Shown here piece by piece: positions 108 through 36,966 of a DNA stretch of 37,098 nucleotides. The notes below the pieces were generated by a model, which saw nothing but the letters and a program-made list of their open reading frames with translations, had not been told where the DNA came from and searched no databases. Source of the stretch: a virus; IMG/VR virus record IMGVR_UViG_3300042879_003287, positions 1 through 37,098 of that record. One strand, 5' to 3'. Numbering within the stretch: position 1 is the first letter of the stretch; each line of letters starts with the position of its first letter. Both the position numbers and the translations under genes were made by a program.

Positions 108-1832
108 GTGGCAAAGATTCATCTCGGAATAATCGTAGGAAACGAAGCGGCCAACATCACCCGCTTCCTCGACAGCTTCCAACCGCACGTTGATTCCGTC
201 AGCGTGGTGCGCGCCTGCGGCAACCAGCCGCCCGACGAGACGCTGGACATCGCCAAGGCGCGTGGCTGCATCGTGGGCGAGTATGTGAATGGCGAGACGG
301 GCAAGCAATGGCCGCACGTCGATAACTTTGCCGCCGCCCGCAACCAGACCTTTGCCCTCGCGCCCGAGGGCACCGACTGGATCATGTGGGCAGATTGCGA
401 CGATCTGCTGGCCGACTCAGGGGCCGAGGCGCTGGCCAAGATTCGCAGCGGCACAGAGATCATCAAAGGCGCCATCTACGCACCGTATGTGACCAACGCC
501 AGCGGCAGCTATGCCAGGCGCATCCGCCTCGTCCATGTGGACTGCTACAGCCAGTGGATCAACGCCGTTCACGAGGACATCGAGACTAAGGACGGCACCA
601 AAAACACTTGGTGCATGGAACTTCAAGTCATCCACCTACCCGAAAACAACAAGCGCGGCAGCGTAGTCCGCAACCGCGCCATACTTGAAAGCGTCCCGCC
701 AGAGCAACGCACGGGCCGCGAATGGTGGTTTCTTTTCCGTGAGTGCGAGACGCAGCAGGACATTCCCAAGGCTATGGAGGCCGCGATCTTTGCCACGGCG
801 CACCCCGAATTAGGCGACGAGGAAAAGTTCGTGGCCTACCAAACCATTGGCCGATGGATCAAAGACGTAGACGAGGCCGAGCGCCCGCTGCTGGAAGCCG
901 TGCGTCTCATGCCGTGGCGCCGCGAAGGCTACGCCGAGCTTTGCAAAATGCACACGGCCAGAGGCAACCCAAAGAAAGGGCTGGCCTATGCCTACGCAAT
1001 GGAAGCGCAACCTATGCCTGACGAACCCTCTTGGACGCACGATGCGTCCCTCTACGGATGGCGAGCGCACGATCTCAAGACGCTTGCCCTGGCTAAAGCC
1101 GGCCACACCAAGGAGGCCGAGCGCATCCGCAAAGAATGGCAGAAGCGCCTCAAGCCGCGCATTGCCGTAGGCCACCCGGCAGGCAGGGGGCAGAAGGACA
1201 TCGAAGTCCGCAACCTCTGGCTGGAGCGGGCCGCGCACCCGGAGCGCGTGGCGTATTATTTTGGCGTCTGCGAGTCGGACGCGGAGGTGGTTGAGCAGTT
1301 GCAGCACTACCCGCACGCATTGGCGCCCGCCGTTCCCGAAGGCCATTCCTCTGCTGTGGCCAACTACAACGCCGCCGCCCGCGCCGCCACCGCATCGGGA
1401 GCGCGCATCTTTATCATGGCGCAGTCGGACGTTTACCCGCCGCATGGTTGGGATGAGCAAGTGATCCAAGCCATGACCCCGCACATGGACAAGCCGACCG
1501 TGCTGCACGTTTCGGATGGCTTCAACAAGCCCGACGAAAAGCTAATGACCATCATGTGCTTTAACTGGCGGTGGTGGCTGGGGCGCGAGTGGTTGCTGTG
1601 CCCCGAATACGACGGCTATTGGTCGGACACCGAGTTTTCTTTCCGCTCCTACCGAGACGGCGTGGTCGAGGATGCGCGGCACATTAAGTTCTACCACGAC
1701 CACCCGCTATTCACGGGCGCGGCCACGGACGAATGTTACCGCCGCCAGCAAAACCCAGAGGCCAACGAGCGCGGCAAAGCTGTCTTCCGCCGCCGCAACC
1801 CGGATGCCGTGGCACAGGGATGGGTGCCATGA
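108..1832 (+). CDS. Two-domain glycosyltransferase (GT2-like N-terminus, helical middle, second GT-like domain)
   Basis: This 574-aa protein is probably a nucleotide-sugar-dependent glycosyltransferase. The N-terminal part reads as a GT-A/GT2 fold: a GNEAANITRFLDS start and an acidic metal-binding motif DCDD at residues 96-99. The middle (about 200-370) is helical and looks like a TPR spacer. A second region (about 385-550) has QSDVYPP near residues 439-444 and WSDTEFSFR, resembling another GT-A domain. The GTG at 108 is the first start after the terminator hairpin; no clear Shine-Dalgarno is seen. The stop overlaps the next glycosyltransferase start (ATGA). Finding it directly after the capsid gene, in the virion block, suggests modification of a virion component or of host surface sugar. 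Acceptor and sugar are unknown. Confidence 0.8.
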   Translation: MAKIHLGIIVGNEAANITRFLDSFQPHVDSVSVVRACGNQPPDETLDIAKARGCIVGEYVNGETGKQWPHVDNFAAARNQTFALAPEGTDWIMWADCDDLLADSGAEALAKIRSGTEIIKGAIYAPYVTNASGSYARRIRLVHVDCYSQWINAVHEDIETKDGTKNTWCMELQVIHLPENNKRGSVVRNRAILESVPPEQRTGREWWFLFRECETQQDIPKAMEAAIFATAHPELGDEEKFVAYQTIGRWIKDVDEAERPLLEAVRLMPWRREGYAELCKMHTARGNPKKGLAYAYAMEAQPMPDEPSWTHDASLYGWRAHDLKTLALAKAGHTKEAERIRKEWQKRLKPRIAVGHPAGRGQKDIEVRNLWLERAAHPERVAYYFGVCESDAEVVEQLQHYPHALAPAVPEGHSSAVANYNAAARAATASGARIFIMAQSDVYPPHGWDEQVIQAMTPHMDKPTVLHVSDGFNKPDEKLMTIMCFNWRWWLGREWLLCPEYDGYWSDTEFSFRSYRDGVVEDARHIKFYHDHPLFTGAATDECYRRQQNPEANERGKAVFRRRNPDAVAQGWVP

Positions 1833-2395
1833 AGCTGGAAATTCTGATTCCCACCATGCCGTCGCGCGCGGCCATGCTGGAAAAGCTGCTTGCCGTCTTA
1901 AAGCCGCAGGCCAAGCGCAGCGTCCGAATTAGCATTGATGACGGCCCCGGATCGGTCGGGGTTAAGCGCCAGCGTATGATCGAGCAAGCCACGGGCGACT
2001 ATGTGGCCTTTGTGGACGATGACGATATGGTGGCGCCCGACTACGTTGCGCGAATCCTTCCCCGCCTTAAAAGCAAGCCCGATGTGGTCGGCATTACCAT
2101 GCACGTCACGATGGATGGAGAGGACTACCGCCCTTCGCCCATTTTCCGCCACAGCCTGCGTTTCCGCGACAACCACCACTGGCAAGGCCAAGACCGCACA
2201 CCGCATCATTTGTGCGCCATTAAGCGCGAGGTGGCCCTACAAAGCCGCTTTCCCGATATGATGTGGGGCGAGGACTACAACTATGCGCTCGGCCTCCTGC
2301 CGCATTTACAGACCGAGGAATGGAGCGGCGACGAGCCGATTTACTTTTACAGCTACGTCACCAAGCACTACGACCCCGGCGTGGCGGGGCTTTGA
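1829..2395 (+). CDS. Family 2-like glycosyltransferase
   Basis: This 188-aa protein begins MKLEILIPTMPSR, as GT2 enzymes do, and has FVDDDDMV at residues 61-68, the acidic nucleotide-sugar/metal motif. A later WGEDYNYALGL resembles the ED motif that carries the catalytic base in GT2 enzymes. It is shorter than most stand-alone GT2 proteins and consists of the catalytic domain only. The start at 1829 overlaps the stop of the larger glycosyltransferase, so the two are probably translated together and may act in sequence. No membrane segment is seen, so it should act in the cytoplasm, before or during virion assembly. Substrates cannot be read from the sequence. Confidence 0.82.
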   Translation: MKLEILIPTMPSRAAMLEKLLAVLKPQAKRSVRISIDDGPGSVGVKRQRMIEQATGDYVAFVDDDDMVAPDYVARILPRLKSKPDVVGITMHVTMDGEDYRPSPIFRHSLRFRDNHHWQGQDRTPHHLCAIKREVALQSRFPDMMWGEDYNYALGLLPHLQTEEWSGDEPIYFYSYVTKHYDPGVAGL

Positions 2396-2414
2396 CTCGC
2401 GGACGTAGGGCATG
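2392..2414 (+). promoter_or_regulatory. TTGACA-type start element, copy at the connector gene
   Basis: TTGACT at 2392, with the upstream TGA stop inside it, is followed by GTAGGGC directly before the ATG at 2412, 20 nt after the first T. It matches the element seen at several other gene junctions in this genome. Function unknown; see findings. Confidence 0.55.
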
Positions 2415-2750: not shown

Positions 2751-2754
2751 GGCG

Positions 2755-4514: not shown

Positions 4515-4533
4515 CACGCCCCGCGAGGGCATG
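4511..4533 (+). promoter_or_regulatory. TTGACA-type start element, copy at the tail tube gene
   Basis: TTGACAC at 4511 (TGA stop of the terminator gene inside it) is followed by GCGAGGGC and the ATG at 4531, exactly 20 nt from the first T. This is one of the three best copies of the recurring element. Confidence 0.65.
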
Positions 4534-5082
4534 GCGACAATTACTTACGGCTCTGGCGCTGGCTTTTCCCGCTCCACCAGCAAAACCTTTGAATACGTTG
4601 CGCCGCAAGACAAAGACGGTGCCGTAGCGGATAACATCCTCAAATACACCCGCACGGAAACCACCACGGAAACCGTGACCTCTACCTTTGGCGCTCCTGA
4701 GATTGACGGCGAGGACGCCATTAGCGCGTCCGTTACTTGGAGTGTGGACGAGGTGATTGTCGATCCGTCTTCCGCTGGCGCCGTTCCTCCCGCCGCCCGC
4801 ACCTACAACCCGCGCGCCGAAGCCTCGGCCACGGTGCTTGGGCCATTTACGGCCAGCACCTTTGAACTCGACGGCACCACTTTCGACACCGTTTCCACCG
4901 AGAAAGCCGAAACCGCTGGCGATGTGGTCAAGACCAACATTCGCGGCGTTTATTACGGAGCGGGCGGAAGTCTGACGGTCGGCAGCATTGCCGCAGGCGG
5001 CACGATCCGCACCGAAAAGCGGTTCAGCAACACTGACTTTGTCCGCACCGTCGCCACAACCGTAGCATTCAGCGGTTCGTAA
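4531..5082 (+). CDS. Probable major tail (tube) protein
   Basis: This 183-aa protein is almost all beta strand, rich in Thr, Ser, Ala and Gly, with few charged helices, which suits a tail-tube subunit. It comes straight after the tail terminator and ahead of the chaperone-like and tape measure genes, the standard siphovirus order. The start carries one of the strongest TTGACA-type elements, as would fit a highly expressed structural gene. There is no Ig-like extension and no contractile sheath gene nearby, supporting a non-contractile tail. The identification is by order and composition. Confidence 0.62.
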   Translation: MATITYGSGAGFSRSTSKTFEYVAPQDKDGAVADNILKYTRTETTTETVTSTFGAPEIDGEDAISASVTWSVDEVIVDPSSAGAVPPAARTYNPRAEASATVLGPFTASTFELDGTTFDTVSTEKAETAGDVVKTNIRGVYYGAGGSLTVGSIAAGGTIRTEKRFSNTDFVRTVATTVAFSGS

Positions 5083-5094
5083 CCGCGCAAGCGC

Positions 5095-5658
5095 ATGGAC
5101 GCGCTCGCGGCAGAGTCTTTTTTAAACGCGCCGCACAAAGTGTGCGGCCTGCGGATGCACCCGCTTTCCTTGGGTCACGCTTTCGCGCTGGAGGCTATTG
5201 CCTCGCCCTTCTACCACGGCAAGCTCGGCAGCGAGGCCGATCTGCGTTTGGCCGTTTGGATCTGCTCGCGCCCGCCCTTGGCCTTGCCACAAATGGACGG
5301 ATGGCGCTGCCGCCTATGGAAATGGCGCAAGATGGATTTCGTCGCCGAGGTGGCGAGGTGGCAGACCTACGTTGCCGACTACTGCGCGCCCCCGCAGATG
5401 TGGAACAAGTCGCCCAAGGCCGGCGAAGAACGCGGCGAACCCTCGCGCATCCCGAACGCCATCACGACCGTCGCCCGCCTCATGCGCCTTGGCATGACCG
5501 AGAAACAAGCCTGGGCCACGCCAGTGGGCGCAGCGGCATGGTATGAGGCTGCGGCCTACGAAACCGAAAGCGGCGCTCACCTCGACATTGTGACCGACTC
5601 TGAGCGCGAGGCCATCGCCCGCAGCAAGGCCCGCAAGGAGGAACAAGCTCATGGCTGA
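5095..5658 (+). CDS. Tail assembly chaperone-position protein
   Basis: This 187-aa protein is rich in Trp, Ala and Arg and mainly helical (for example AVWICSRPPLALPQMDGWRCRLWKWRKMDF). It lies between the tail tube and tape measure genes, where tail assembly chaperones are found, and overlaps the tape measure start by 8 bases. I see no clear -1 frameshift slippery site joining it to a second chaperone frame, so if it is the chaperone it may be a single-product version. The start follows a GCGCAAGCGCATG junction 12 nt after the previous stop. Function is inferred from position only. Confidence 0.45.
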   Translation: MDALAAESFLNAPHKVCGLRMHPLSLGHAFALEAIASPFYHGKLGSEADLRLAVWICSRPPLALPQMDGWRCRLWKWRKMDFVAEVARWQTYVADYCAPPQMWNKSPKAGEERGEPSRIPNAITTVARLMRLGMTEKQAWATPVGAAAWYEAAAYETESGAHLDIVTDSEREAIARSKARKEEQAHG

Positions 5659-7009
5659 AGTAAAAGTAAAAATCACAGCGGCCAACCAGACGCAGACGGG
5701 CTTCCAGTCCGTGCTGGCCGACGCCAAGAAAACGGCGACTCAGGTGCAGCAAACTTTTTCGCAGGCATCGGCGGGGCCGCGTATGCCCAAGCTCAAAGAG
5801 ATGACATCTGCCGGGCCAATGGACATCGACATCGGCGACTACGGGCTTGGGCCGCTGCGCGAACTCCAAGACGAGCTCAAAAAAGCAAGACAATCGGCAC
5901 AGCAAGCCTTCGACACGACTCCGCCAGAAGAATTTAGCAACGGGATTGGCAGTGTCTTGGGCCGTTTTGCGCTGATGATCGGCGCTGCGGCAACCGTTGG
6001 AAAAATTGTGGCGTCGGCTTTCGACAGTTTAAGCGAAGCCGTAAAGCGAGCCATAGGTGTGCAGGAGCAATTTAACCGATCACTGCGAGAAGCTGGTAGC
6101 GCCACATCTCTTGAGGGGGCGATTACTCAATTCAAGCAGCTTCAAGATTTTGCCCAGCAAACTGGCAAAACTATTGAACAAACATTCGGTCGCAGCACAG
6201 GCGAAGCCCTTGCTAACCTCTTTAGCGGACGGCCCGGACAACTTTTGGCGCGTGGTGCGGATATGCTCACGGGCGGGTCAGTGGCCGACGAAATAAGAGC
6301 GCAACAACAACAACAGCGCCGAATTGCTGGGGAATCCCTGCTTGCGTCACTTTCCCGCCAATCGCTTGAGGCGCAAGCGGTGGCCCAAGCCGGCGGCGAC
6401 GAAGGCGCCATAGACCAAGCGCAAAAAGAGCAACGCCGTCGCGCAGCAAAGCAGCAGCTTGAAGCCGCTCTGACGGGCGTGAATCCCGTCATGGCCGACC
6501 TTATACGCCAAGAGCAGGCGGCTATTGATGCGGCCCAAGACCAGGCAGAGGCCAACAAGCAAAAGCTCGAAACAGAAAAAGAAATCACGCGAGAAAAAGA
6601 GCGCCAAGCTCAAGCCGACGCCCGCGCCGCCGAGCGTCGCCGTGACTTTAACGCCAACACCGAACTGCTTCAGGCTCGCGCCAGCGGAGACAAGGGGCTG
6701 GAGCGTGATCTTTTGGAGCGGCAAGACTTTGAGCGCGCCCTTGAAGCAACAGGAAGTTTTGAAGACGCCGCCAACTTTGCCGCCGCATCTCAAGCATTGC
6801 GCGACCAGAAGGAAAACAAAGAAGGGGGCATAGCCGGCTCCTTCGGCGCCTCCCAACTCCAACGCATCGGCTTTGCCTCAAACGAGTTTTTCGACACCCG
6901 CCGCAAGGAAGACCCGGCAAAGACAATGCAGCAAGTTGTCAGAGAGCTTCAGAAGGTAAACAAGAACCTCGAAAATGGAGAACCCATCGTTCTCCGCAAC
7001 AACGGATAA
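5651..7009 (+). CDS. Tape measure protein (short)
   Basis: This 452-aa protein is helical, with long Gln/Glu/Lys/Arg coiled-coil stretches (roughly 215-345) and one hydrophobic stretch, ALMIGAAATVGKIVASAF, near residues 105-122. This is the make-up of a tail tape measure, which sets tail length and enters the channel. It is short for the family; at about 0.15 nm per residue it predicts a tail of roughly 70 nm. Its position after the tail tube and chaperone-like genes supports the call. It begins inside the end of the previous gene, and its stop lies 3 nt before the next start. Confidence 0.72.
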   Translation: MAEVKVKITAANQTQTGFQSVLADAKKTATQVQQTFSQASAGPRMPKLKEMTSAGPMDIDIGDYGLGPLRELQDELKKARQSAQQAFDTTPPEEFSNGIGSVLGRFALMIGAAATVGKIVASAFDSLSEAVKRAIGVQEQFNRSLREAGSATSLEGAITQFKQLQDFAQQTGKTIEQTFGRSTGEALANLFSGRPGQLLARGADMLTGGSVADEIRAQQQQQRRIAGESLLASLSRQSLEAQAVAQAGGDEGAIDQAQKEQRRRAAKQQLEAALTGVNPVMADLIRQEQAAIDAAQDQAEANKQKLETEKEITREKERQAQADARAAERRRDFNANTELLQARASGDKGLERDLLERQDFERALEATGSFEDAANFAAASQALRDQKENKEGGIAGSFGASQLQRIGFASNEFFDTRRKEDPAKTMQQVVRELQKVNKNLENGEPIVLRNNG

Positions 7010-7012
7010 GTC

Positions 7013-7654
7013 ATGGCACAAATCGAAACAACAGGCGGTGGGTATCTCGACAGCGGAGACAGAAAAGTTCTTCGCAAGGTTTACGTTTCCACAGGCGGGA
7101 CGCTCATCAACATACCGACAACCGAGCAAGGCTTCCCCCTGTCCTCCGTCAGCGCCAGCGAAGAACCCGGCGGCATCCGCCGCGCCGTGGCCGAATACTC
7201 CCAAGGCGGCGAGGGGGGCGCGTCTTACAACGCCTACGGCAAGCGAATTGAGCTTACTGGCGGAACGCGGGAGGTGCCGATCTACAACCACCCTACATTT
7301 GAGACACTAACGCCGCAGCAAATTCAGGACGTGCAGACGGCGGTGGAAAACAAAACTCAAGGGCCATTTGGCAGTGCGGCACAGACCAAGCTCTTTGGCT
7401 TCCTTTTGCGCGGCACGGAATACTTTCTTGCCCCTGCTGTTGTCGGGCGCATCTCGGAAATCGAATCGACTCTGCCGAGCCTTTCTCCCATTGCAAAAGC
7501 TGCCAACCCCTCGGAGCTAAACGCACCAAACGGAACCTTCTGGATTTGCACCGCGATCACAGCCAACCCGATCGGAACGCGCTACGAAGTGACCCGCGAA
7601 TACACGTTGAGCTTCAGCGCGTGGGAAGACGTGCAAGACCTTTATAGCTGGTAG
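7013..7654 (+). CDS. Distal tail / baseplate-region protein
   Basis: This 213-aa protein follows the tape measure gene, where distal tail (Dit-like) genes lie. It is beta-rich, with Gly-rich turns, and ends with YEVTREYTLSFSAWEDVQDLYSW, a strand pattern seen in structural proteins. No enzymatic motif or membrane segment is visible. It is 3 nt from the tape measure stop and 3 nt from the next start, so it belongs to the same translation unit. I place it in the tail tip by position. Confidence 0.42.
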   Translation: MAQIETTGGGYLDSGDRKVLRKVYVSTGGTLINIPTTEQGFPLSSVSASEEPGGIRRAVAEYSQGGEGGASYNAYGKRIELTGGTREVPIYNHPTFETLTPQQIQDVQTAVENKTQGPFGSAAQTKLFGFLLRGTEYFLAPAVVGRISEIESTLPSLSPIAKAANPSELNAPNGTFWICTAITANPIGTRYEVTREYTLSFSAWEDVQDLYSW

Positions 7655-7657
7655 GCC

Positions 7658-8314
7658 ATGTCCGACTTCGCGCAAATCCGATTCCTGCCAAACAGGCCGC
7701 TCCTGCGCGAACTGAGCGCCGATCGTCTCAACACGATCCTGCAAGAGATCAAACGCAACAAGCCCAAGGGCGAGCGCGGCATCACCGTCAGACAAGACGG
7801 CACCGGCACTTACATCGGACTTGCCGCGTCCTTGCCTCGCGGCGGCACCTCCTCCGCCCCAGCAACCCGCCAACCATGGGACTTAATCGCCCGCGTCGAT
7901 CCCGACGCCGATCCCGAAGACGAGAACCCGCCTTATCTCGTCAGCGTTCAGCCCGGAACGCTGAACGGATTTCTCCCGACAAACTGGAACACGGAGGGGG
8001 GCGGCAAGGATGCTGTTTGCCAATCAGACGGCACGCTCTACTACGCCAAGGCTATCGTAGCGACAGACGGCCAAGCCATGACGAGCGTGACGATTGAGAT
8101 AGACGAAAATGCGCCAGACCCGCAAGAGCCGCAGGAGTTCGGCATAGATAACCCGATCGAGATTGTGTTCGGGCTCTTTGCAGAGGGTGCCGTCTACCGC
8201 TTAATTGGCGCGGGCAACATTGCGGCTTCGCCCAAACTTTGGCTTACCACCGAGCGGCAAACGCCCCCAGCCCCCGGCGAGCTTCCGTTCAGCCAATACT
8301 TTTTCTTCCGATGA
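7658..8314 (+). CDS. Tail tip / baseplate structural protein of unknown role
   Basis: This 218-aa protein begins with a helical N-terminus (RELSADRLNTILQEIKRNKP) followed by strand-rich sequence with RGITVRQDGTGTYIGLA, typical of proteins that dock fibres onto a baseplate. The middle has an acidic stretch (DPDADPEDENPP). No catalytic motif is seen. It lies between the distal tail candidate and the Ser/Thr-rich protein and overlaps the latter by ATGA, suggesting equimolar translation with it. It could be an adaptor between tail tip and that protein. Confidence 0.4.
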   Translation: MSDFAQIRFLPNRPLLRELSADRLNTILQEIKRNKPKGERGITVRQDGTGTYIGLAASLPRGGTSSAPATRQPWDLIARVDPDADPEDENPPYLVSVQPGTLNGFLPTNWNTEGGGKDAVCQSDGTLYYAKAIVATDGQAMTSVTIEIDENAPDPQEPQEFGIDNPIEIVFGLFAEGAVYRLIGAGNIAASPKLWLTTERQTPPAPGELPFSQYFFFR

Positions 8315-10104
8315 TCTCGTGGGAAACCACCGTTGCGCCCCAGACTTCTTTTAGCGGGTCAAGCGAGCAGTCCACGATTCGCAACCAAAACCCTGGTGGT
8401 GGCGCTTCTATTACTATCACTCAGCGCGCAACATTTACCTCGTCCTATAACTGGTCACGAACAGAATTCTCTTCGACATCTTCAGTGGCGGCGCACACTG
8501 GCGGCGGAAGCGGCAATTCGCAAAGCTACATTTCCGTTTTAGGCACAACAAATTCAACGCAGGGTAACAGCTACACTCGGCGCTCGGTAATGAACATTAC
8601 CTCAACCGAAACCACCCGCCAATACACCTACGGAGCGACGGGAACGCAAACGGTTGAAACAACAGCGCAAACCACGACAGCGATTGAGGGGGAGGAGCAA
8701 ACTTTTGTCTGGTCTGTCCCGACCACTTCCACAATCACCACCACCACGGGCTACGCAACAACCCTTGAAACTTGCCTCAGCACAACGACGGGGTCGGACA
8801 CGATTGCCACACCAATCCGCGCAACTGTCTATGTGGCCGACAAAAATGAGGCGCTCCTCGTTGCCCCCTCTTTTGCCGCCACCGATGCCAGTGGCTACAC
8901 GGCGGCAAGCGCCGTTCTCACAACGGCAACGCGCACAACTTTGATGCCGTGGACGCAAACCGCGGTTGCTCTGAAGGCCAACTCAACAGAAACAACATCA
9001 TACGAGCAGGCAGCAATATCTGGCTCGGTCTCATTTCACAGGCTGGCCTTTGGAAGCGAAACGCGGACAACGGTGACCAACTTTGCCTCTTTGCCGAACA
9101 AAACCGAGGTAACAAACTGGCAAACCTATGCGCTAAATACAAGCGCAGCATTTTTTACGGCGTTGCCAGCCGAAACCATCACGGCTACGGGGTCAGTTGT
9201 TTCTATCAGCAGTGTCGTGACATCAGTTGTTCAAACTTTCGGCACAACCTACGGATCATCTTACGCCACAACAGCATCAAGCGTGGCGATTGTGTCTCGT
9301 CAACAGACAGCGCCGTGGGTTGAGTCTTCCACTCAAGCAAACAGGCCCACCATTGGAGCAACAAATGGAAGCGGAACAAATACAACCGCCTACACATGGA
9401 CAATGTCATTCGACGCAACCACATCCAACGAGCTAACAACATTTGCCGCGCAGCCCCAAGGAGTTACCCTTTTTCGCTCAACAAATCAGTCGCAGATCAG
9501 CAGACAAAGAAGGTTTGTTGGTGGCGTTAGTGGAGGCAGTGCCGTCGCCGTGGGCTACACTTGCCAAGAACTCGGCCTCATTCCTTCATCTCCATTAGTA
9601 AGTCGAAGTGTGGCATCGCTGACGTGCGGAATTGTTGAGTATTCGCAAACTTATTCCACCGTCTATTCATTTGATGAAGAAACTTACGAGGGAACTTTAA
9701 ACAGCGCGGCTGGCACGGCCACAATTAATGGCCTGTCGGTCACCGCCCAACATTCAAGCACCACAGCAACCACAAGTTTTGTTGTCAGCGGATTTGGCGA
9801 CACAACTTATCGTTTTGCCAATTTGCTAACCTCAAAGATTGACGCTTCATCGCTCGGCCAAAGTGAAACTGTTTACGCCACGGCAATCAGTGGCGTTTAT
9901 TCTTCTGAAGCAACCACTTTTAGCACAACAGGAGGAGCTTCTTCTTGGGCAGTTGGCGGGGGATCACAGCCTGCTCTTTTCCCTTTAAGTTATTTGGGCG
10001 CTGGAACGGGCGCAACGCCTGACGCAATTCTTTGGTCAGTTTCTCGAAATTCGCACCCAAGCCACTCTGCTTTGACCGATGCCCAGGCGTATAGCCAACT
10101 TTGA
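8311..10104 (+). CDS. Very Ser/Thr-rich tail protein, possible glycosylation target
   Basis: This 597-aa protein has extreme composition: by my count about 39 of its first 100 residues are Ser or Thr, with very few Lys. It looks like a long beta-rich, mucin-like filament. I recognise no family domain. Its place between tail tip genes and fibre genes makes a tail fibre or tip adhesin likely. The next gene downstream is a glycosyltransferase and the one after a sugar-epimerase-like cupin; this arrangement makes it a candidate O-glycosylation substrate, which is my inference. The start at 8311 is set by ATGA overlap with the previous gene; the open frame extends upstream but only into that gene. 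Base composition is more AT-rich than its neighbours. Confidence 0.55.
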   Translation: MISWETTVAPQTSFSGSSEQSTIRNQNPGGGASITITQRATFTSSYNWSRTEFSSTSSVAAHTGGGSGNSQSYISVLGTTNSTQGNSYTRRSVMNITSTETTRQYTYGATGTQTVETTAQTTTAIEGEEQTFVWSVPTTSTITTTTGYATTLETCLSTTTGSDTIATPIRATVYVADKNEALLVAPSFAATDASGYTAASAVLTTATRTTLMPWTQTAVALKANSTETTSYEQAAISGSVSFHRLAFGSETRTTVTNFASLPNKTEVTNWQTYALNTSAAFFTALPAETITATGSVVSISSVVTSVVQTFGTTYGSSYATTASSVAIVSRQQTAPWVESSTQANRPTIGATNGSGTNTTAYTWTMSFDATTSNELTTFAAQPQGVTLFRSTNQSQISRQRRFVGGVSGGSAVAVGYTCQELGLIPSSPLVSRSVASLTCGIVEYSQTYSTVYSFDEETYEGTLNSAAGTATINGLSVTAQHSSTTATTSFVVSGFGDTTYRFANLLTSKIDASSLGQSETVYATAISGVYSSEATTFSTTGGASSWAVGGGSQPALFPLSYLGAGTGATPDAILWSVSRNSHPSHSALTDAQAYSQL

Positions 10105-10125
10105 CATTCTGCCCGCCCGCGAGTG
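10101..10125 (+). promoter_or_regulatory. TTGACA-type start element, copy at the third glycosyltransferase
   Basis: TTGACA at 10101, again with the upstream TGA stop inside it, is followed by CGCGA and the GTG at 10123, 22 nt after the first T. It is a weaker member of the set (slightly longer spacing and GTG start). Confidence 0.5.
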
Positions 10126-11154
10126 CTGGCGATAGCAACATACGCAACCAAGAGCTATTTCCACTGTTGGCCGCAGGCTCTAAGGCGCATCGCTGCCGCC
10201 GCCGGGCATCACGCCGAAGCGCATTTCATCTTGGCGACCGATCAGAGCGACGAGGCGAAGCAGGCTATTGAAGCAGCGCGCCACGAGCTACCCGAAGGGT
10301 GGCGAATCCAAGCCGTGCAGCTTCCGCTCGATGACGGGGGAGTCGAGGGAAAGGACTACCAAGTAGAGGCGCAGATGCGGATTGCCGCCCTGCAAGGGGC
10401 CGCTTTTGCCGCCGCTCGCAAAATCCGCGCCTCGATGCTGTGGAGCGTCGAGGCCGACAACCTTGTCCCTGCCGATGCCCTCCGAGTGGCCGAGTGGACG
10501 TTGCAAATGCCGCAGGCGGATGGCTCGCCTTACTATGAGGTGGCGGCGGTAACGTATCCCAACGGCTTATTTCTCGGAGGCAATGGGACGCCACAGCACC
10601 CGATTGCCGAAGACTTCACCGAGAAGGAGCGCAAGCTGCCGCCGCGCCTCGCCCGCGCTTTGGAACTATGCCGGGAACGCCTAAAGTCCGAGCCAACCAG
10701 CGAGAAGGAGGGCAAGCGGTTGGGCCGATTGCATGAGCGGGTAAAGAAATGCGCGCCCGATGGCAACGTGTTTGAAGTCACGGCCAAACACGGCTGGAGG
10801 CGCAGGGGATGGCTGGACTTTGCGTTCCCCGGAATCGGTCGCGGGGCCATTGTGCAGTCTGATTGGTGCGGGCTTGGCTGCACACTCATGTCGGCCAAGG
10901 CATTGGCGCTGGCCGAGTTTAGCGGCTACGACGGGCGAGGGACGCAAGACCTGTTCCTTTGCTGGCATAGGTGGCACCCGGCAGGGCTTCGAATTGCCTG
11001 CATCCCTCACACGGCGGCGGATCATGTGAAGCGCAAGGCCAAGGACGCACCCGCAGACGCACCCGAATATACCCATTTCCGCGCCTACCACGAAACAGAA
11101 GGCGAATATCGCGGCCACCTCCGCGTTCGTCAGCAGGAATGGATGCCATGTTAG
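10123..11154 (+). CDS. Probable glycosyltransferase (GT-A fold)
   Basis: This 343-aa protein has the layout of a GT-A glycosyltransferase: an N-terminal strand-helix start (LAIATYATKSYFHCWPQAL), an acidic motif SVEADNLVPADAL with E110 and D112 in the DxD position, and a C-terminal GTQDLFLCWHRW followed by IACIPHTAADHV, resembling the catalytic-base and final His motifs of the fold. It uses a GTG start in the recurring TTGACA-type junction. It overlaps the RmlC-like gene downstream. Placed right after the Ser/Thr-rich protein, it may decorate that protein; this is inference. It might instead modify host polysaccharide. Confidence 0.68.
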   Translation: MLAIATYATKSYFHCWPQALRRIAAAAGHHAEAHFILATDQSDEAKQAIEAARHELPEGWRIQAVQLPLDDGGVEGKDYQVEAQMRIAALQGAAFAAARKIRASMLWSVEADNLVPADALRVAEWTLQMPQADGSPYYEVAAVTYPNGLFLGGNGTPQHPIAEDFTEKERKLPPRLARALELCRERLKSEPTSEKEGKRLGRLHERVKKCAPDGNVFEVTAKHGWRRRGWLDFAFPGIGRGAIVQSDWCGLGCTLMSAKALALAEFSGYDGRGTQDLFLCWHRWHPAGLRIACIPHTAADHVKRKAKDAPADAPEYTHFRAYHETEGEYRGHLRVRQQEWMPC

Positions 11155-11576
11155 CCGAGATCCGCCCACTCACCGCCCACCTCGATGAGCGGGGCAAGCT
11201 CACCGAAATCTTCCGCGCCTCGGATGACGCGCACGGATTCGGCCAAGCCTACATCACGACTTGCGCGGCGGGTGTGGTGAAAGCCTGGCACCGCCATCGG
11301 CTGCAAGTGGATCGCTGGTATTGCGTGGCCGGGGCGGCGAAAGTCGGCATCTGGGACGCCGAGGCCATGCGCGGCCAGACGATCATCCTTTCCGCCGACA
11401 CGCCGCAACTTTTGACCATCCCAGCAGGCTTGTTCCACGGATTCACGCCATGTCACGGCCACCGCGAGGCGGCGATCCTTAACCTACCATCCTGCGAATA
11501 TGATCCCGCCAACCCCGACGAGGAGCGACGTGGGCCGTTGGCTTTCCCGTTTCAGTGGGCCGTAGAGTCGCGCTGA
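11148..11576 (+). CDS. RmlC-like cupin (dTDP-4-dehydrorhamnose 3,5-epimerase family relative)
   Basis: This 142-aa protein has the signs of a sugar epimerase-type cupin: RPLTAHLDERGKLTEIFRA at the N-terminus, then KAWHRHRLQVDRWYCVAG with paired His and the Q-x-D, a Gly-rich turn, and IPAGLFHGF with the late cupin His, ending in EYDPANPDEE. In RmlC relatives this fold changes the configuration of nucleotide sugars. It is shorter than full RmlC (about 180 aa), so the exact reaction is uncertain. It overlaps the third glycosyltransferase by 7 bases and probably supplies or edits its donor sugar. An in-frame ATG at 11139 is an alternative start. Confidence 0.75.
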   Translation: MLAEIRPLTAHLDERGKLTEIFRASDDAHGFGQAYITTCAAGVVKAWHRHRLQVDRWYCVAGAAKVGIWDAEAMRGQTIILSADTPQLLTIPAGLFHGFTPCHGHREAAILNLPSCEYDPANPDEERRGPLAFPFQWAVESR

Positions 11577-11580
11577 CACT

Positions 11581-11614
11581 TTGACACAGAGGGCGAGGGC
11601 AGGAGTCCTCTGTG
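11581..11614 (+). promoter_or_regulatory. TTGACA-type element with displaced start
   Basis: TTGACACAGAGG at 11581 and GCGAGGGC before 11601 match the recurring element, but the base expected to begin ATG is followed by GG, and the usable GTG lies at 11612. A short GAG-rich stretch (GGCAGGAG) could act as a Shine-Dalgarno for that GTG. It looks like a decayed or altered copy. Confidence 0.45.
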
Positions 11615-12166
11615 CGCGTCTATATCAACCTCGACAGCAGCGAATTTGTCGTTTCGCCCGTCCTAACCCAACGGGTCAATACGCTGTTTTTCACCCGCCG
11701 CGACACGGTTCCCGTCGAGGTGCAGTTCGTGCGAGGCGCCTCTGTGGTTGAGTTGGGCGCGGGGGCCACGGGCGCGATCGGGATAAAAAAGACCTACACG
11801 GGCAGCTTTTTGGCCTCGGACACCGCTTGGACAAAGACGGGCACGGGCAGCGCCACGGTTTACCAATTTGATTTAAATCTCAACACAACCAGCTTGGACT
11901 CTGAGTTCAGCCCGGACGCAACGACTGACAGCATCACGGCCAAAATCGAAGTCACTTGGTCTGTTAGCGGAACCACCACCACCACGTTGCCAACTTCGGC
12001 GGTGATCTACAACGATGTGATTCGCGGCGGCGAAGGCGCGCCCGTCACTCCGGGTGGCGGAAGCGGTGGCGGCGCAATCTCCTCGTTCATCCTTGTCGCC
12101 CCCAACAGCGATCAATGGTCGGTCTCCATCGACAACAGCGGAGTTTTGACGGCAACCAAGCAATAA
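11612..12166 (+). CDS. Structural protein of the fibre/baseplate region
   Basis: This 184-aa protein is beta-rich and Thr-rich (a SGTTTTTLPTSAV stretch), with a Gly-rich linker GGGSGGG near residue 148-156 and a terminal strand pair SSFILVAPNSDQWSVSIDNSGVLTATKQ. The final segment resembles small tail-attached domains in fibre modules. It has no signal peptide. It starts with GTG after a displaced TTGACA-type element. Together with the 13294 gene it resembles baseplate upper/fibre attachment domains. I cannot name it more exactly. Confidence 0.4.
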   Translation: MRVYINLDSSEFVVSPVLTQRVNTLFFTRRDTVPVEVQFVRGASVVELGAGATGAIGIKKTYTGSFLASDTAWTKTGTGSATVYQFDLNLNTTSLDSEFSPDATTDSITAKIEVTWSVSGTTTTTLPTSAVIYNDVIRGGEGAPVTPGGGSGGGAISSFILVAPNSDQWSVSIDNSGVLTATKQ

Positions 12167-12167
12167 C

Positions 12168-13118
12168 ATGAAAACTCTCCTCACCCTCCTTTTCGCCACC
12201 CTCTGCGCGGCCACCGGCTACGGGCAGACCATGAAGGCGTTGTCTTACAATGCAAGCAACGGCGTTGTGGCTTATAGTGGGACGAATACGCTGGAGTTTA
12301 CAAACAAACCGCTGTTTGCAAGTGGAATTTCAGTGTCGGACGAGTTGTTTTTTGTTGACGCTGGATCAATATTTTTTGATGGCGATACAGATATTTCGAT
12401 AAATTCGTCCTACACATCAGAGCAGTGGCGAAACGCGATCGGCCTTGGCGCGACCAACAGCGCTACATTTGGAGCAATAACGGTCAATGACGGATCTGGT
12501 AACCACGAGCTAAGAATTACAGAGGGCGGATTTCTTGCGGTAGAAGGAACAAACGAACTTGGATCATTAGACCTTGAAACTCGTGGTTTCACTGGGGGAG
12601 TTTTCACATTTGAGCAGGGGCTACACAGCAGGGGAAACATCGTCATCACCAACCAGACCGCCACCAACAACGGGATTCTTTTCATCTACCGCACCAACAA
12701 CGAACCCTTCCTCGGCCTTGCCAACCTCATAGCGTCAAACAACACGACGATCAGCAACGAAACGCTTTTTCGCGTAGGCACCGCAGAGGCCACAAACCGC
12801 TCGGCGCAATTCGGATTCCGCAGCACCAACACCAACGGCAGCGGCGTGGCCGTGTTCAGCGTGTTTGGATACAACGCTTTGATGATGGTGGGCGCGGACG
12901 CCTCGACCAACGCCGTGATCTATTCGGGCGGCGGCACAAACAACGAAGTGATGACCCTTATCCGCGACGGAGCCACCGAGTTTGCCCGCCCGATCCGCTT
13001 TTCGACCAACGCCTCGACCCGCCCCGCGACCAACGCACCGGCCAACACGACCAACGTGGCCGCGTGGGTCGAGTTTCGCATCGGCACGAATTCTTACCGC
13101 GCACCGTTGTATCAATGA
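12168..13118 (+). CDS. Fibre-like protein with an N-terminal signal peptide
   Basis: This 316-aa protein begins with a clear Sec signal peptide: MKTLLTLLFATLCAATGYGQ, Lys then a hydrophobic core, with cleavage likely near residue 18-20. The rest is Asn/Thr-rich beta sequence with many TN steps and ends with AAWVEFRIGTNSYRAPLYQ, which looks like a fibre tip. A signal peptide is unusual for a tail protein made in the cytoplasm. It may be an exported decoy or host-surface protein, or a host gene captured and used in fibres. It starts 1 nt after the previous stop and overlaps the next gene by ATGA. The region around 12230-12620 is noticeably more AT-rich. Confidence 0.55.
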   Translation: MKTLLTLLFATLCAATGYGQTMKALSYNASNGVVAYSGTNTLEFTNKPLFASGISVSDELFFVDAGSIFFDGDTDISINSSYTSEQWRNAIGLGATNSATFGAITVNDGSGNHELRITEGGFLAVEGTNELGSLDLETRGFTGGVFTFEQGLHSRGNIVITNQTATNNGILFIYRTNNEPFLGLANLIASNNTTISNETLFRVGTAEATNRSAQFGFRSTNTNGSGVAVFSVFGYNALMMVGADASTNAVIYSGGGTNNEVMTLIRDGATEFARPIRFSTNASTRPATNAPANTTNVAAWVEFRIGTNSYRAPLYQ

Positions 13119-13297
13119 TCCACGAGCTTTCAGATTTCTTTACCCGCCCCACCGTGGCCGTAGCTTCTTCACTCGGTAGCGTCATCGTCTCGCTGCTTCC
13201 GCATTTGGAGACAGGGATGAGGCTTGGCACACTTTTTTGCGGCCTCGCCATCGCCGTGCTGGCCTTGGGCAAAGCATGGAGGGATCGGAACAAATGA
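13115..13297 (+). CDS. Small two-TM protein, holin candidate
   Basis: This 60-aa protein has two hydrophobic segments, TVAVASSLGSVIVSLLP (about residues 12-28) and TLFCGLAIAVLALGKAW (about 39-55), and a charged C-terminus (RDRNK), the layout of small class II phage holins. It lies between fibre genes and is not next to the amidase, so an alternative is an anti-holin or a membrane protein involved in adsorption or entry. The start at 13115 comes from ATGA overlap with the upstream stop; the frame is open further upstream but inside the previous gene. Confidence 0.5.
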   Translation: MIHELSDFFTRPTVAVASSLGSVIVSLLPHLETGMRLGTLFCGLAIAVLALGKAWRDRNK

Positions 13298-13659
13298 GCG
13301 CCTGCACTTCCTCACAAGCCGATCTGTGCTGGACGCGGGGCGACTCCGGGCGGCTCGATGTGTCGGTCAAAGACGCGGACGGCACGGCCTACAACTTAAC
13401 GGGCAGCACGCTTTTCTTAACAGTGAAGAACGCGCTCACCGATGCGGATTCTGCCGCCGTGATTCGAAAAGAAGTCACCTCGCACAGCAACGCGGCGGGT
13501 GGGATTTCGCATTTTGATCTTCTGACCACGGACAACGCCACGGCGGGCACTCGTTACTACGATGTGCAGTTAAAGGACTCGACCAACAAAATCTACACGC
13601 TTTTCGGCGGTCTGTGGAAAGTCCTCTCCGACGTAACCACCCGCACCGCACCGCTCTAA
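13294..13659 (+). CDS. BppU-like baseplate/fibre-attachment domain protein
   Basis: This 121-aa protein has a pattern I associate with baseplate upper/fibre N-terminal domains: RGDSGRLDVSVKDADGTAYNLTGSTL followed by GGISHFDLLTTDNATAGTRYYDVQLKDSTNKIYTLFGG and a final strand. This beta-sandwich often links fibres to the tail tip. It starts by ATGA overlap at 13294 and ends 1 nt before the long fibre gene starts, so it likely forms part of the same fibre complex. The call rests on pattern recognition and not on a catalytic motif. Confidence 0.5.
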   Translation: MSACTSSQADLCWTRGDSGRLDVSVKDADGTAYNLTGSTLFLTVKNALTDADSAAVIRKEVTSHSNAAGGISHFDLLTTDNATAGTRYYDVQLKDSTNKIYTLFGGLWKVLSDVTTRTAPL

Positions 13660-13660
13660 A

Positions 13661-15553
13661 ATGGCCGCGTATCACAAAGTCGAGGTCAGTCTGAACACCA
13701 ACGCGGTTGAGGTTGGTATTCCTTCGCCGCAAACAGTCAATGTTGTCGTGCCGACCATAGGCCCGGCTGGGCCTGTCGGCAGCGTTGGCCCCGTTGGGCC
13801 TCAAGGCCCACAGGGAGTGCCAGGCACCGGGCTGGAAGTCCTGACCACGCAGGGCGACATTCTTTACCAAGGAGCGTCTACCGGGCAGCGCCTCCCCATC
13901 GGCACAAGCGGCCAAATCCTCAAAGTCGCCGCCAGCGGAATCCCCGAATGGGGCGCAGCCCCGGCGTCGGGCGTGTCCTCGGTGAATGGCGAAACGGGCG
14001 CAGTCACAATCACCGCAGCCTCAATCGACGCCGCCAACGCAAATCACTCGCACCAGCCAGCGGATGTCTTTGCCGACGCGGCAAAAGTCACCTCTTCTTC
14101 CGCAATCTTTGCAGGGATCTATTTTCGCAACGGCGACGATAACGGCAAAGGGCTTTACGAAGACCCGGACAGCCGAAACTACTTCTGGTGGGACAGCGAT
14201 CTCAGCAAATGGTTTCTTGCCAATGCCGCAGACGCCAGCCGCTTTGAGAGCAGCAGCAACACGCTATTTCCGTGGCAGGCGACAGGCTGGACGCCGATTT
14301 CCCCGCAAACGGGAACCCTCACCGTGGCCCAAGCTAATCTCTATGAGGCGTCCGGGGCTTCGGCCAATGAGTCGCTGTTAAGAACTCCAAAAAGCGGCAA
14401 CGCCACAAGCGGTCAGCTTGTCTTGGGCTCCGATTCCCGCCTTTCCGACAGCCGCACTCCAAGCAGCACCCTCGCGCACGCCGCAAGCCATTCGGCGGGT
14501 GCTAAAGCATTCTTTTTGGGGACTGTTGGCGGTGCTCCAGACACGTTTTCCATTATTGCAGATAATGTCGGCGCTGCTGGAAACAGCATTTCTTTTTCTT
14601 TTAACGGCTCGACTGACATTGATTCAGCCGTGAATGCGTGGAATGCGGCAAATCCATCAAATACGGCATCTGTTATTTCGTTATCTGGAGATGGAACACA
14701 AGTTCCCAGCAACGGCCAAACCATTACATTGTCTGGAGGCGTAAACCTTGGCAGCGATCCAATTGTTAGTCCTGTTTTTGAAAAGGTAACAATAGCCAAT
14801 GATGATGAGGACGTTTCAGTTCTTTCTCTAACAAAACTCACACAAAACATTATTGAGTTTGCCACACAAGAGCTTTCAATAAACCACACAGGCGGTAACG
14901 ATACGCCATACATATCAGTAAGCGATGGAACAGATGAGGCGCTGCTTGGTCTTCGCCAAGGCGAAATGTTTTTGCAAGGCAGCAACCCCAATGTCCGCAT
15001 TGAGCAAAATGGTGGCGCGCTTGCCAACATCCTTATGGCAAGCGCCAAACTTGTTGACGATTTGGGCTTTGACGAGCAAGGGCCATATACTGCGACAATA
15101 GATGTTCAAGAGCAGCTTACAGACAACGTAACCCTCACGATTCCCGACCAGTCGGGAACTCTCGCAGTCGTTACAGACATCCCAACCACCGCAGGAGATG
15201 TTGGCGCGGTAGCGGCAGGAGCCATCACCACCTCTGGCCTCACCCAAGCCACGGCGCGTCTAATCGGAAGGACGAGCAGCGGCACAGGTGCCGTCGAGGA
15301 GATCCAAATCGGCACGGGCCTTTCGCTGTCGGCGGGGGAGCTTTCGGCAACGGGCGGAAGTGGCGGCGGAGAAGTCCGCAGCGATTTCGTCAGCCCTTAC
15401 ACCTACACGGGCCTCGCAGACGCGGGCACCAGCGAATCCACCGCAAACTGGACAATCCGCCGCAGTGAATACAACTCGGCAGGAACCTATGTCGCCACGC
15501 TTACCGCATCCGCTGTCCAGTGGGCCAATCGCTTAACCGCCTCTTACGCTTAA
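13661..15553 (+). CDS. Tail fibre with collagen-like segment
   Basis: This 630-aa protein has Gly-X-Y triplets at about residues 34-55 (GPAGPVGSVGPVGPQ and on), a trimeric collagen-like stem, followed by fibre-type repeats with TLAHAASHSAGA and other beta-rich blocks, and a C-terminal SGGEVRSDFVSPYTYTGLAD with the tip sequence NWTIRRSEYNSAGTYVATLTA. The collagen stem and C-terminal tip point to a homotrimeric receptor-binding fibre. The middle (about 14480-15120) is more AT-rich than the ends, which suggests domain exchange. The start at 13661 lies 1 nt after the previous stop. Confidence 0.75.
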   Translation: MAAYHKVEVSLNTNAVEVGIPSPQTVNVVVPTIGPAGPVGSVGPVGPQGPQGVPGTGLEVLTTQGDILYQGASTGQRLPIGTSGQILKVAASGIPEWGAAPASGVSSVNGETGAVTITAASIDAANANHSHQPADVFADAAKVTSSSAIFAGIYFRNGDDNGKGLYEDPDSRNYFWWDSDLSKWFLANAADASRFESSSNTLFPWQATGWTPISPQTGTLTVAQANLYEASGASANESLLRTPKSGNATSGQLVLGSDSRLSDSRTPSSTLAHAASHSAGAKAFFLGTVGGAPDTFSIIADNVGAAGNSISFSFNGSTDIDSAVNAWNAANPSNTASVISLSGDGTQVPSNGQTITLSGGVNLGSDPIVSPVFEKVTIANDDEDVSVLSLTKLTQNIIEFATQELSINHTGGNDTPYISVSDGTDEALLGLRQGEMFLQGSNPNVRIEQNGGALANILMASAKLVDDLGFDEQGPYTATIDVQEQLTDNVTLTIPDQSGTLAVVTDIPTTAGDVGAVAAGAITTSGLTQATARLIGRTSSGTGAVEEIQIGTGLSLSAGELSATGGSGGGEVRSDFVSPYTYTGLADAGTSESTANWTIRRSEYNSAGTYVATLTASAVQWANRLTASYA

Positions 15554-15575
15554 CAACTAACCGAAGAACAAAACT

Positions 15576-15893
15576 ATGATCGCTACAACTCCTCTTGAAA
15601 TCGACGGCCAGACCTACGACCGCTGGTCGCTCAACCTCGCCATCACGGGCAAATACAAAGCAGACGGCTCGCCCGATGCGTCGATTGCGATGCGCCTTAT
15701 CCCCACGCGCATAGCACACGCGACCACCGACGAAGAAGGCAACGCCGTTCTCGCCCAAACCGTCACCGCCGACAGCAATGCCATCGGCATCCTGCGCGGG
15801 TATCTCTCGGAGGTTAATGACCCCGCCGAAGCCGCTTGCGTCTCGGCCATCACCACCGCGTTGCAAACCTTCATCGCCGCCAAGGGGTTGTAA
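15576..15893 (+). CDS. Small fibre-associated protein
   Basis: This 105-aa protein lies between two fibre genes. It begins TPLEIDGQTYDRWSLNLAITGKYKADGSPDASIAMRLIP and ends with a helical AACVSAITTALQTFIAAKGL. It resembles small proteins encoded next to phage fibre genes (fibre assembly or accessory proteins) but has no known motif. There is no signal peptide. The 22-nt gap upstream has no TTGACA-type element and only a weak A-rich leader; the next gene follows 3 nt after its stop. Confidence 0.42.
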   Translation: MIATTPLEIDGQTYDRWSLNLAITGKYKADGSPDASIAMRLIPTRIAHATTDEEGNAVLAQTVTADSNAIGILRGYLSEVNDPAEAACVSAITTALQTFIAAKGL

Positions 15894-15896
15894 GTC

Positions 15897-17165: not shown

Positions 17166-17174
17166 AGAAGGGCT

Positions 17175-17196
17175 TTGACACCCCGCGACGAGCATG
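17175..17196 (+). promoter_or_regulatory. TTGACA-type start element, copy at the holin-like gene
   Basis: TTGACAC at 17175 precedes GCGACGAGC and the ATG at 17194, 19 nt from the first T. Here the TTGACA is not part of the upstream stop codon (the stop is TAA at 17163), so the element is kept independently of the stop. Confidence 0.6.
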
Positions 17197-30330: not shown

Positions 30331-30357
30331 CGCGAAAAAGCCGTATCACAATGCCCA

Positions 30358-32877: not shown

Positions 32878-32878
32878 A

Positions 32879-36065: not shown

Positions 36066-36117
36066 GGGCCAACCCCCAAAGAAAAACCAACAACAACCCG
36101 AAAAAACCTAAAATAAT

Positions 36118-36966
36118 ATGGCAAACGTATTCGATTCAGCACTCGTCGTAGCGACGATCTCTGAACAGGTGCAGACGGTGCTCGCCAACCGGTTGGCCCC
36201 GCTTCGCATCTTCAGCACGGATTTCTCCAACGAAGTCCGCAAACCCAAGGACACCATTCAGGTGCCCCTCGTCACGGCCACCAGCGCCACGACCACCAAC
36301 CCGACCGATTTCACCCCGGCTTCCGACGTTACCGTTGGTAAGGCGACCGTGACGCTCGACCACTACAGCCAGTTCTTCGGCATCACACAGGCCGACCTCG
36401 CTTTGGGTCATCGTCTGGAGAATCTGGTGCGTATCAACCTCAACGCTCTCGCCGACAAACTGTTCTCGGTGGCGATCACCCCGATCACCACGGTTAACTT
36501 CGGCGCGGCCACGGTTACCACGACCACCATCACCCCCGGTTCCGGCCATCTCGCTTCCCTGTGGAGCGCGATCAGCAAGAGCGACCGCAAGGGTCTGGTT
36601 GTTACTCCCGAAATCTACAGCAAGTTGATCCCGACCAACGCCGACTTCCTGCCGCTCCAAAACGGAGCCTACGGATTCGACCAGGGCATCTACTACGCCA
36701 ACAGCTTCAGCGGTGCTGTCGCGGGCCTCGACGGCTTCGCGGTTTCGCCCGAAGCGGTTGCGGTGGCCTCGGCCATGCCCGTCATCGATCCGGCGGTCGC
36801 TAACCTCCTCTACGTCTCGGACAACGTGACGCTTGAGCAGCTTGGCATGACCGTCATGTATAACATCACCGCCTCGCAGTCCACCCGCACGGTGACTGCC
36901 TCGGTCGAAGTTATGTTCGGATCGGCAGCCGGTCTGACCAGCGGCACCTGCGCGCTCATCATCTAA
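36118..36966 (+). CDS. Major capsid protein
   Basis: This 282-aa protein is the likely major capsid protein: MANVFDSALVVATISEQVQTVLANRLAPLRIFSTDFSNEV, then strand-rich T-loop sequence (TIQVPLVTATSATTTNPTDF) and a C-terminal LYVSDNVTLEQLGMTVMYN segment, as seen in the P22/HK97-like coat fold. It follows the protease-scaffold gene, the standard order, and is followed by a hairpin-rich region. The 52-bp upstream gap is A-rich (AAAAAACCTAAAATAAT before ATG) with no TTGACA element or Shine-Dalgarno, so its initiation differs from other late genes. No Ig-like insertion is seen. Confidence 0.83.
   Translation: MANVFDSALVVATISEQVQTVLANRLAPLRIFSTDFSNEVRKPKDTIQVPLVTATSATTTNPTDFTPASDVTVGKATVTLDHYSQFFGITQADLALGHRLENLVRINLNALADKLFSVAITPITTVNFGAATVTTTTITPGSGHLASLWSAISKSDRKGLVVTPEIYSKLIPTNADFLPLQNGAYGFDQGIYYANSFSGAVAGLDGFAVSPEAVAVASAMPVIDPAVANLLYVSDNVTLEQLGMTVMYNITASQSTRTVTASVEVMFGSAAGLTSGTCALII

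What the first reader, a model, noticed from the sequence alone, without database searches (positions are those of the whole stretch)
8311..11576. Candidate virion glycosylation island around an extremely Ser/Thr-rich tail protein
A 597-aa protein with about 39 Ser/Thr in its first 100 residues is followed by a glycosyltransferase and an RmlC-like cupin. With the two glycosyltransferases near the capsid gene this gives three transferases and a sugar-editing enzyme inside the late block. The simplest reading is that the phage builds a sugar coat on its own tail or capsid, for masking or receptor use. I do not know a described system with this set.
Basis: inference. Interest (0 to 1): 0.8.

Follow-up and report, generated by a model that had tools for sequence, protein, structure and literature searches.

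The report
Phage tail-protein sugar-coating gene cassette
This uncultured phage, probably infecting Verrucomicrobiota, carries a fast-changing serine/threonine-rich tail-region protein that is always paired with the same nearly unchanging sugar-attaching enzyme; the pair is gained and lost together, so the phage very probably sugar-coats part of its own tail, by a system separate from a second set of sugar enzymes tied to its capsid.

Summary
The 597-aa protein at 8311-10104 has 39 Ser/Thr in its first 100 residues (34% overall) and is followed by a GT-A-fold glycosyltransferase (gtC, 10123-11154) and an RmlC/FdtA-like cupin. In 64 of 64 distinct relatives whose neighbouring gene is complete, gtC lies beside such a protein (median 30.5% Ser+Thr against 12.5% for other long genes). 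The partner changes almost beyond recognition (about 29% identity) even where gtC is 90-95% identical. A search blind to gtC found 6 relatives without gtC; all also lack the Ser/Thr-rich protein and the cupin. One is a complete genome with the same capsid (99%) and the same capsid-side transferases (98%). The capsid-side gtA changes allele together with the major capsid protein. gtB resembles glycosyltransferases of actinobacteriophages, the group in which capsid and tail-tube glycosylation has been reported. gtC and the cupin belong to the Ser/Thr-rich tail protein. Best reading: phage-encoded O-glycosylation of a hypervariable tail protein, a new variant of a known kind (virion glycosylation). 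Not shown: the sugar, the modified residues, or that modification happens at all.

The parts
7658..8314 (+). gene immediately upstream of the Ser/Thr-rich gene (218 aa), probable tail adaptor; its C-terminal part differs in phages that lack the cassette
   Evidence: conserved N-terminus, divergent C-terminus in gtC-negative relatives; stays next to the Ser/Thr-rich gene in both gene orders (L035)
8311..10104 (+). hypervariable Ser/Thr-rich tail-region protein (597 aa), proposed acceptor
   Evidence: counterpart adjacent to gtC in 64 of 64 distinct relatives with a complete neighbour gene
10123..11154 (+). gtC, GT-A-fold glycosyltransferase (343 aa, GTG start), 18 bp after the Ser/Thr-rich gene
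   Evidence: invariant E110-x-D112, T274-Q275-D276, D300-H301; GT-A fold; median dN/dS 0.09 and no membrane segment
11139..11576 (+). RmlC/FdtA-like cupin, candidate sugar-nucleotide isomerase/epimerase (145 aa), overlaps the gtC end
   Evidence: found beside gtC in 32 of 66 representatives
36118..36966 (+). major capsid protein (separate capsid module)
   Evidence: Phage_capsid_4 below the cut-off, 3.3e-4; position after portal and the putative protease gene
108..1832 (+). gtA, two-domain glycosyltransferase-like protein of the capsid module
   Evidence: weak GT2 and SunS matches; allele switches with MCP
1829..2395 (+). gtB, family 2 glycosyltransferase of the capsid module
   Evidence: PF00535 6.5e-11; homologous to Che8 gp108 and to 59 actinobacteriophage records

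Best explanation
The genes 8311 / 10123 / 11139 form a cassette in which the phage makes a Ser/Thr-rich, probably beta-strand-rich tail protein and glycosylates it in the host cytoplasm before tail assembly. gtC is the transferase. Its partner varies freely in sequence, so gtC most likely recognises a Ser/Thr-dense strand rather than one sequence. The cupin, where present, edits the sugar nucleotide supplied by the host; in relatives it is joined or replaced by a DUF3431 protein, a second GT-A enzyme or a sulfotransferase, which would change the glycan. The upstream 7658 gene is the likely attachment partner on the tail. A second, independent module (gtA, gtB) sits behind the major capsid protein and probably modifies the capsid. 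Shown: gene content, folds, linkage, co-loss, purifying selection on gtC. Inferred: acceptor, O-linkage, the sugar, the site of assembly and the benefit (solubility, protease or receptor masking, or adhesion).
For: (1) gtC has a GT-A fold with an invariant E-x-D in the DxD place and is under purifying selection (median dN/dS 0.09), with no membrane segment. (2) A Ser/Thr-rich gene is adjacent in 64 of 64 distinct relatives with a complete neighbour, 58 upstream on the same strand and 6 convergent where the cupin-gtC pair is encoded on the opposite strand, so linkage survives a change of operon. (3) Co-loss: of contigs found through tail genes without reference to gtC, 43 with gtC (my count from contig names) all have the Ser/Thr-rich gene, and 6 with the slot fully sequenced but no gtC all lack it (Fisher 7e-8, not corrected for relatedness). 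One of the 6 is a complete 38,591-bp genome with the same 127-bp terminal overlap, MCP 99%, gtA 98%, gtB 98%, portal 94%. (4) Constant enzyme, variable partner: at 90-95% gtC identity the partners are 29% identical at the median. (5) Adjacent accessory genes are sugar or decoration enzymes. (6) The same pair occurs with a distant gtC homologue on a tail-gene-bearing contig of a genome in the phylum of the Chthoniobacter MAG (660 aa, 31% Ser+Thr).
Against: No biochemical evidence; metagenomic sequence only. Ser/Thr occur preferentially at even spacings (lag 2 z = 16, lag 4 z = 13) and proline is low (3.9%), so the bias could be partly structural (beta-fibre) and is not mucin-like. The AlphaFold model of the 8311 protein is unusable (pLDDT 43.7). 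gtC's best fold match covers it only moderately (TM 0.48) and no sequence family names it, so substrate class is unknown. The cupin is absent in about half the relatives (some lack downstream sequence), so it cannot be essential. A few partners are only 21-24% Ser/Thr. The gtC-negative contigs represent only about three replacement types, so the co-loss rests on few independent events.
Confidence: 0.68

Rival explanations
1. gtC (with cupin) modifies a host surface glycan, for superinfection exclusion or serotype change, and the Ser/Thr-rich protein is the receptor-binding protein that would otherwise bind that glycan.
For: Phage transferases that alter host surface sugars are well known; the cupin family also serves polysaccharide synthesis. 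Linkage of a receptor protein to a receptor-altering enzyme would also give co-loss.
Against: gtC lies inside the tail gene block, usually 18 bp after the tail gene; it has no membrane segment and no GtrA/flippase companion was seen beside it. gtC stays 80-93% identical in the close group while its partner is rewritten, whereas a changing receptor should change the enzyme.
Confidence: 0.13
2. gtC modifies another virion protein (for example the 7658 gene product or the major tail protein); the Ser/Thr content of the 8311 protein is only beta-fibre composition.
For: Even-spaced Ser/Thr typical of beta strands; the C-terminal part of 7658 also differs when the cassette is absent; the putative major tail protein (4531) is 26% Ser/Thr.
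Against: 7658 and the 4531 gene persist in gtC-negative relatives; the Ser/Thr-rich protein disappears with gtC. Other fibre-type genes in the same genomes are mostly 19-25% Ser/Thr.
Confidence: 0.12
3. All three transferases and the cupin build one glycan on a shared target.
For: All lie in the late block; multi-transferase operons exist in actinobacteriophages.
Against: gtA and gtB remain at 88-98% in three relatives without 8311, gtC or cupin; gtA allele type tracks the capsid allele type in every contig while gtC does not.
Confidence: 0.05
4. gtC glycosylates phage DNA bases.
For: A protein annotated as TET-associated glycosyltransferase appears among weak fold matches.
Against: Strict pairing with a tail-region gene; no base-hypermodification gene was recognised in the window, although not every gene was searched.
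Confidence: 0.02

Closest known systems
Virion glycosylation of actinobacteriophages (mycobacteriophages Che8, Corndog, Myrna; Freeman et al. 2023, as cited in PMC12363180, PMC11256854, PMC12619734; the original was not readable here)
   Same: Phage-encoded transferases acting on the phage's own capsid and tail tube. gtB is homologous to Che8 gp108 (31% over 157 aa, 73 bits) and to LittleE gp15, which like gtA lies directly behind the capsid gene.
   Different: gtC has no detectable sequence relative among 50,697 phage records including Che8. The proposed acceptor is a hypervariable Ser/Thr-rich tail protein, not the capsid or tail-tube subunit, and it travels with its enzyme.
Serine-rich repeat / Ser-Asp repeat adhesins with adjacent dedicated transferases (GtfA/GtfB, SdgA/SdgB; from general knowledge, Sdg system listed in PMC3794999)
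   Same: A Ser-rich surface protein beside its own cytoplasmic transferase.
   Different: No repeats recognised, no secretion locus, GT-A instead of GT-B fold; here the protein belongs to a virion gene block.
Collagen hydroxylysine galactosyltransferase COLGALT1 (GT25)
   Same: Best fold match of gtC; a protein O-glycosyltransferase.
   Different: 12-14% identity, TM 0.48; fold resemblance only, not membership.
Phage serotype-conversion gtr clusters
   Same: Phage-encoded transferases.
   Different: No membrane flippase or lipid-carrier transferase; encoded in the tail block.

Membership tests
GT-A fold glycosyltransferase (gtC) | Rossmann-type nucleotide-sugar fold | tested here: met
   AlphaFold pLDDT 78.7; 131 PDB matches at E<=1e-3, the 50 listed dominated by GT-A enzymes
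GT-A fold glycosyltransferase (gtC) | Acidic DxD-type motif at the end of the nucleotide-binding strand | tested here: met
   Invariant E110-x-D112 at the end of strand 105-110 in 29 aligned sequences; metal binding not tested
Phage-encoded virion glycosylation (Che8 type) | Transferase gene(s) carried by the phage itself | tested here: met
   Window is a virus record with a 127-bp terminal overlap, i.e. complete
Phage-encoded virion glycosylation (Che8 type) | Homology to the actinobacteriophage enzymes | tested here: inconclusive
   gtB: met (Che8 gp108, 59 records). gtC: not met
Phage-encoded virion glycosylation (Che8 type) | Glycans covalently on virion proteins, dependent on the transferase | not testable with these tools
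   needs virions or recombinant protein
Capsid-gene-adjacent transferase module | Transferase between the capsid gene and the head-tail connector genes, linked to the capsid | tested here: met
   gtA starts 104-120 bp after MCP and its two allele types match two MCP types without exception; LittleE has the same order
RmlC/FdtA-like sugar-nucleotide cupin | Passes a curated family cut-off | tested here: met
   PF14667 39.5 bits, cut-off 28.7; L035 homologue reaches the FdtA cut-off
RmlC/FdtA-like sugar-nucleotide cupin | Isomerase or epimerase activity on a dTDP-sugar | not testable with these tools
   enzyme assay needed
Serine-rich repeat glycoprotein system | Repeat-built Ser-rich acceptor with GT-B transferase pair GtfA/GtfB | tested here: not met
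   gtC is GT-A; no dominant shared motif in partners beyond MISW-type starts and short Thr runs
Serotype-conversion gtr cluster | Membrane flippase and lipid-linked transferase | tested here: not met
   No hydrophobic segment in gtA, gtB, gtC or cupin (largest 19-residue Kyte-Doolittle mean 1.14)

The most novel reading that the evidence does not exclude
A constant glycosyltransferase coats a freely diversifying tail protein, with swappable sugar editors (cupin, DUF3431, second GT-A, sulfotransferase), giving a phage lineage a modular system for changing both the protein and the glycan on its tail, exchanged as a cassette independently of the capsid-glycosylating module.
Probability: 0.4. Interest if true: 0.75.

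Novelty: new variant of a known kind. Interest (0 to 1): 0.62.

Why it matters
Virion glycosylation in tailed phages is reported, in the literature found here, for actinobacteriophages, on capsid and tail tube. This points to two separable modules in phages that probably infect Verrucomicrobiota. One resembles the actinobacteriophage capsid type; the other is, as far as the searches here show, an undescribed tail cassette in which enzyme and acceptor are inherited together. It names the acceptor, the enzyme and natural cassette-negative phages with almost the same capsid module, so the function of a sugar coat on a phage tail becomes directly testable.

Tried and rejected
Single-system reading of all three transferases: rejected on allele tracking and natural cassette-negative relatives. 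Mucin-like domain: rejected (proline 3.9%, even-lag Ser/Thr). Common acceptor sequon: none found beyond protein ends and short Thr runs. Structure of the 8311 protein: model too poor to search. Cultured relatives: gtC and the 8311 protein have no match in 50,697 phage records; the nearest cultured phage by terminase is Akkermansia phage Moulinsart (33%), whose annotated left two-thirds shows no transferase. First alignment of 7658 homologues was too divergent to search. Literature searches for a Ser/Thr-rich phage tail protein with a dedicated transferase found none; the primary Freeman 2023 paper was not held. One early script failed on a wrong frame and was corrected.

Full report
What the window is. 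The record is a virus genome of 37,098 bases whose ends share 127 bases, so it is complete. Terminase (GpA type), lambda-type portal and capsid genes lie at 30351-36966 and the late block continues across the circle junction into 108-18136. Its terminase is closest among cultured phages to Akkermansia phage Moulinsart (33%), and gtC homologues occur in a contig binned as Chthoniobacter (L061) and in a second genome of that phylum, so the host is probably a member of Verrucomicrobiota (inference).

The observation. The 8311-10104 gene encodes 597 aa, 39 Ser/Thr in the first 100 and 34% overall; all other genes tested in the window are at 26% or less. It carries almost no lysine (0.7%). No Pfam, PHROG or NCBIfam model matches it. 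The 10123-11154 product (gtC) also has no family match, but AlphaFold with 29 aligned sequences gives a GT-A fold (pLDDT 78.7); Foldseek finds 131 solved structures at E<=1e-3, the best being COLGALT1, with TarS and GnT-I lower in the list, and viral glycosyltransferases. E110-x-D112 is invariant and sits at the end of a strand, where GT-A enzymes keep the DxD motif. The cupin passes the PF14667 cut-off and resembles a dTDP-sugar isomerase.

Linkage. Scans with gtC gave 91 usable loci including the window, 66 after removing those above 95% gtC identity. In all 64 whose neighbour is not cut by a contig end, a gene of 357-858 aa with 21-39% Ser+Thr adjoins gtC; 94% of these reach 24% Ser+Thr, against 3.7% of 273 other long genes in the same loci. 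In 58 it lies upstream on the same strand, usually with an 18-bp gap. In 6 the cupin-gtC pair is encoded on the opposite strand and the Ser/Thr-rich gene converges on gtC; in L035 it still adjoins the 7658 homologue. The two exceptions (L071, L072) have a convergent Ser/Thr-rich reading frame cut off by the contig end. gtC evolves under strong constraint (median dN/dS 0.09) while partners of 90-95% identical gtC are 29% identical at the median.

Natural knock-outs. To avoid choosing by gtC, relatives were collected with three tail genes. By contig name, 43 contigs have gtC and all carry the Ser/Thr-rich gene. Six have the whole slot sequenced without gtC (L126, L128, L131, L132, L139, L174); in each, Ser/Thr-rich gene, gtC and cupin are all missing and a single gene of 222-296 aa with 15-21% Ser+Thr fills the slot, in L126 followed by a small extra frame. 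Three further contigs end inside the Ser/Thr-rich gene, so their gtC status is unknown (L137, L140, L175). L131 and L132 are near duplicates, and the fillers fall into about three types, so the 7e-8 Fisher value overstates independence. L174 belongs to a complete genome of 38,591 bp with the same 127-bp terminal overlap, MCP 99%, gtA 98%, gtB 98%, portal 94% identical to the window, and no cassette anywhere. The C-terminal part of the 7658 protein also changes with the cassette, which suggests that it docks the Ser/Thr-rich protein (inference).

Two modules. gtA begins 104-120 bp after the capsid gene in every contig where both are seen. Capsid alleles of 62-99% identity always go with gtA alleles of 65-98%, capsid alleles of 23-26% always with gtA of 33-37%, while gtC is 80-92% with either. 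gtB matches Che8 gp108 (31% over 157 aa, 73 bits), and all 59 records it finds among 50,697 phage records are phages of Mycobacterium, Gordonia or Actinoplanes; in LittleE the homologue lies directly behind the capsid gene and before the head-tail connector, the same order as here. Mycobacteriophages glycosylate capsid and tail-tube proteins with their own transferases (PMC12363180 and PMC11256854, citing Freeman 2023). So the capsid module is a probable member of a known kind, and the tail cassette is a separate unit.

Accessory genes. The cupin occurs in 32 of 66 representatives, always within 2.5 kb of gtC, although some of the rest lack downstream sequence. Others carry DUF3431 between gtC and cupin (L026, L032, L034, L063), a second GT-A-like gene directly after gtC (L046, L091, L093; motif-based reading, no Pfam hit for the L046 protein), or a sulfotransferase (L052, L060). 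These fit a decoration system whose final sugar varies.

Mechanism, likely but not shown. Host nucleotide sugar, edited by the cupin where present, is used by soluble gtC to modify Ser/Thr of the tail protein in the cytoplasm before assembly. Ser/Thr are enriched at even spacings, so they would line one face of beta strands. That pattern could also be plain fibre composition, which is the main weakness. Whether the glycan hides the tail, protects it or helps it adhere cannot be told from sequence.

Verdict. New variant of a known kind.

Noticed in passing
32777-34927: The portal protein has a C-terminal extension with a JAMM/MPN-like HNHP...S...D pattern beyond the lambda-portal domain (domain match ends near residue 480).
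   Followed up: no
12168-13118: A tail-block gene starts with a signal-peptide-like sequence (MKTLLTLLFATLCAATGYGQ); counterparts in L126, L131 and L139 also begin with signal-like sequences.
   Followed up: partly
5651-7009: The putative tape measure gene (452 aa) is itself very variable between close relatives (22-53% identity) although several flanking genes are 80-99% identical.
   Followed up: no
L228:10174-11562: In a distant phage region of a genome in the phylum of the Chthoniobacter MAG, the gene after the gtC homologue is called as a 462-aa protein with 55% Ser+Thr.
   Followed up: no
108-1832: gtA has a second GT-A-like half (around residues 380-574) and its first half weakly matches the SunS peptide S-glycosyltransferase family.
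   Followed up: partly
L028:13915-14598: Some relatives carry a D-alanyl-D-alanine carboxypeptidase-type (VanY/M15) gene where the window has an Amidase_2 gene (17495-18136).
   Followed up: no
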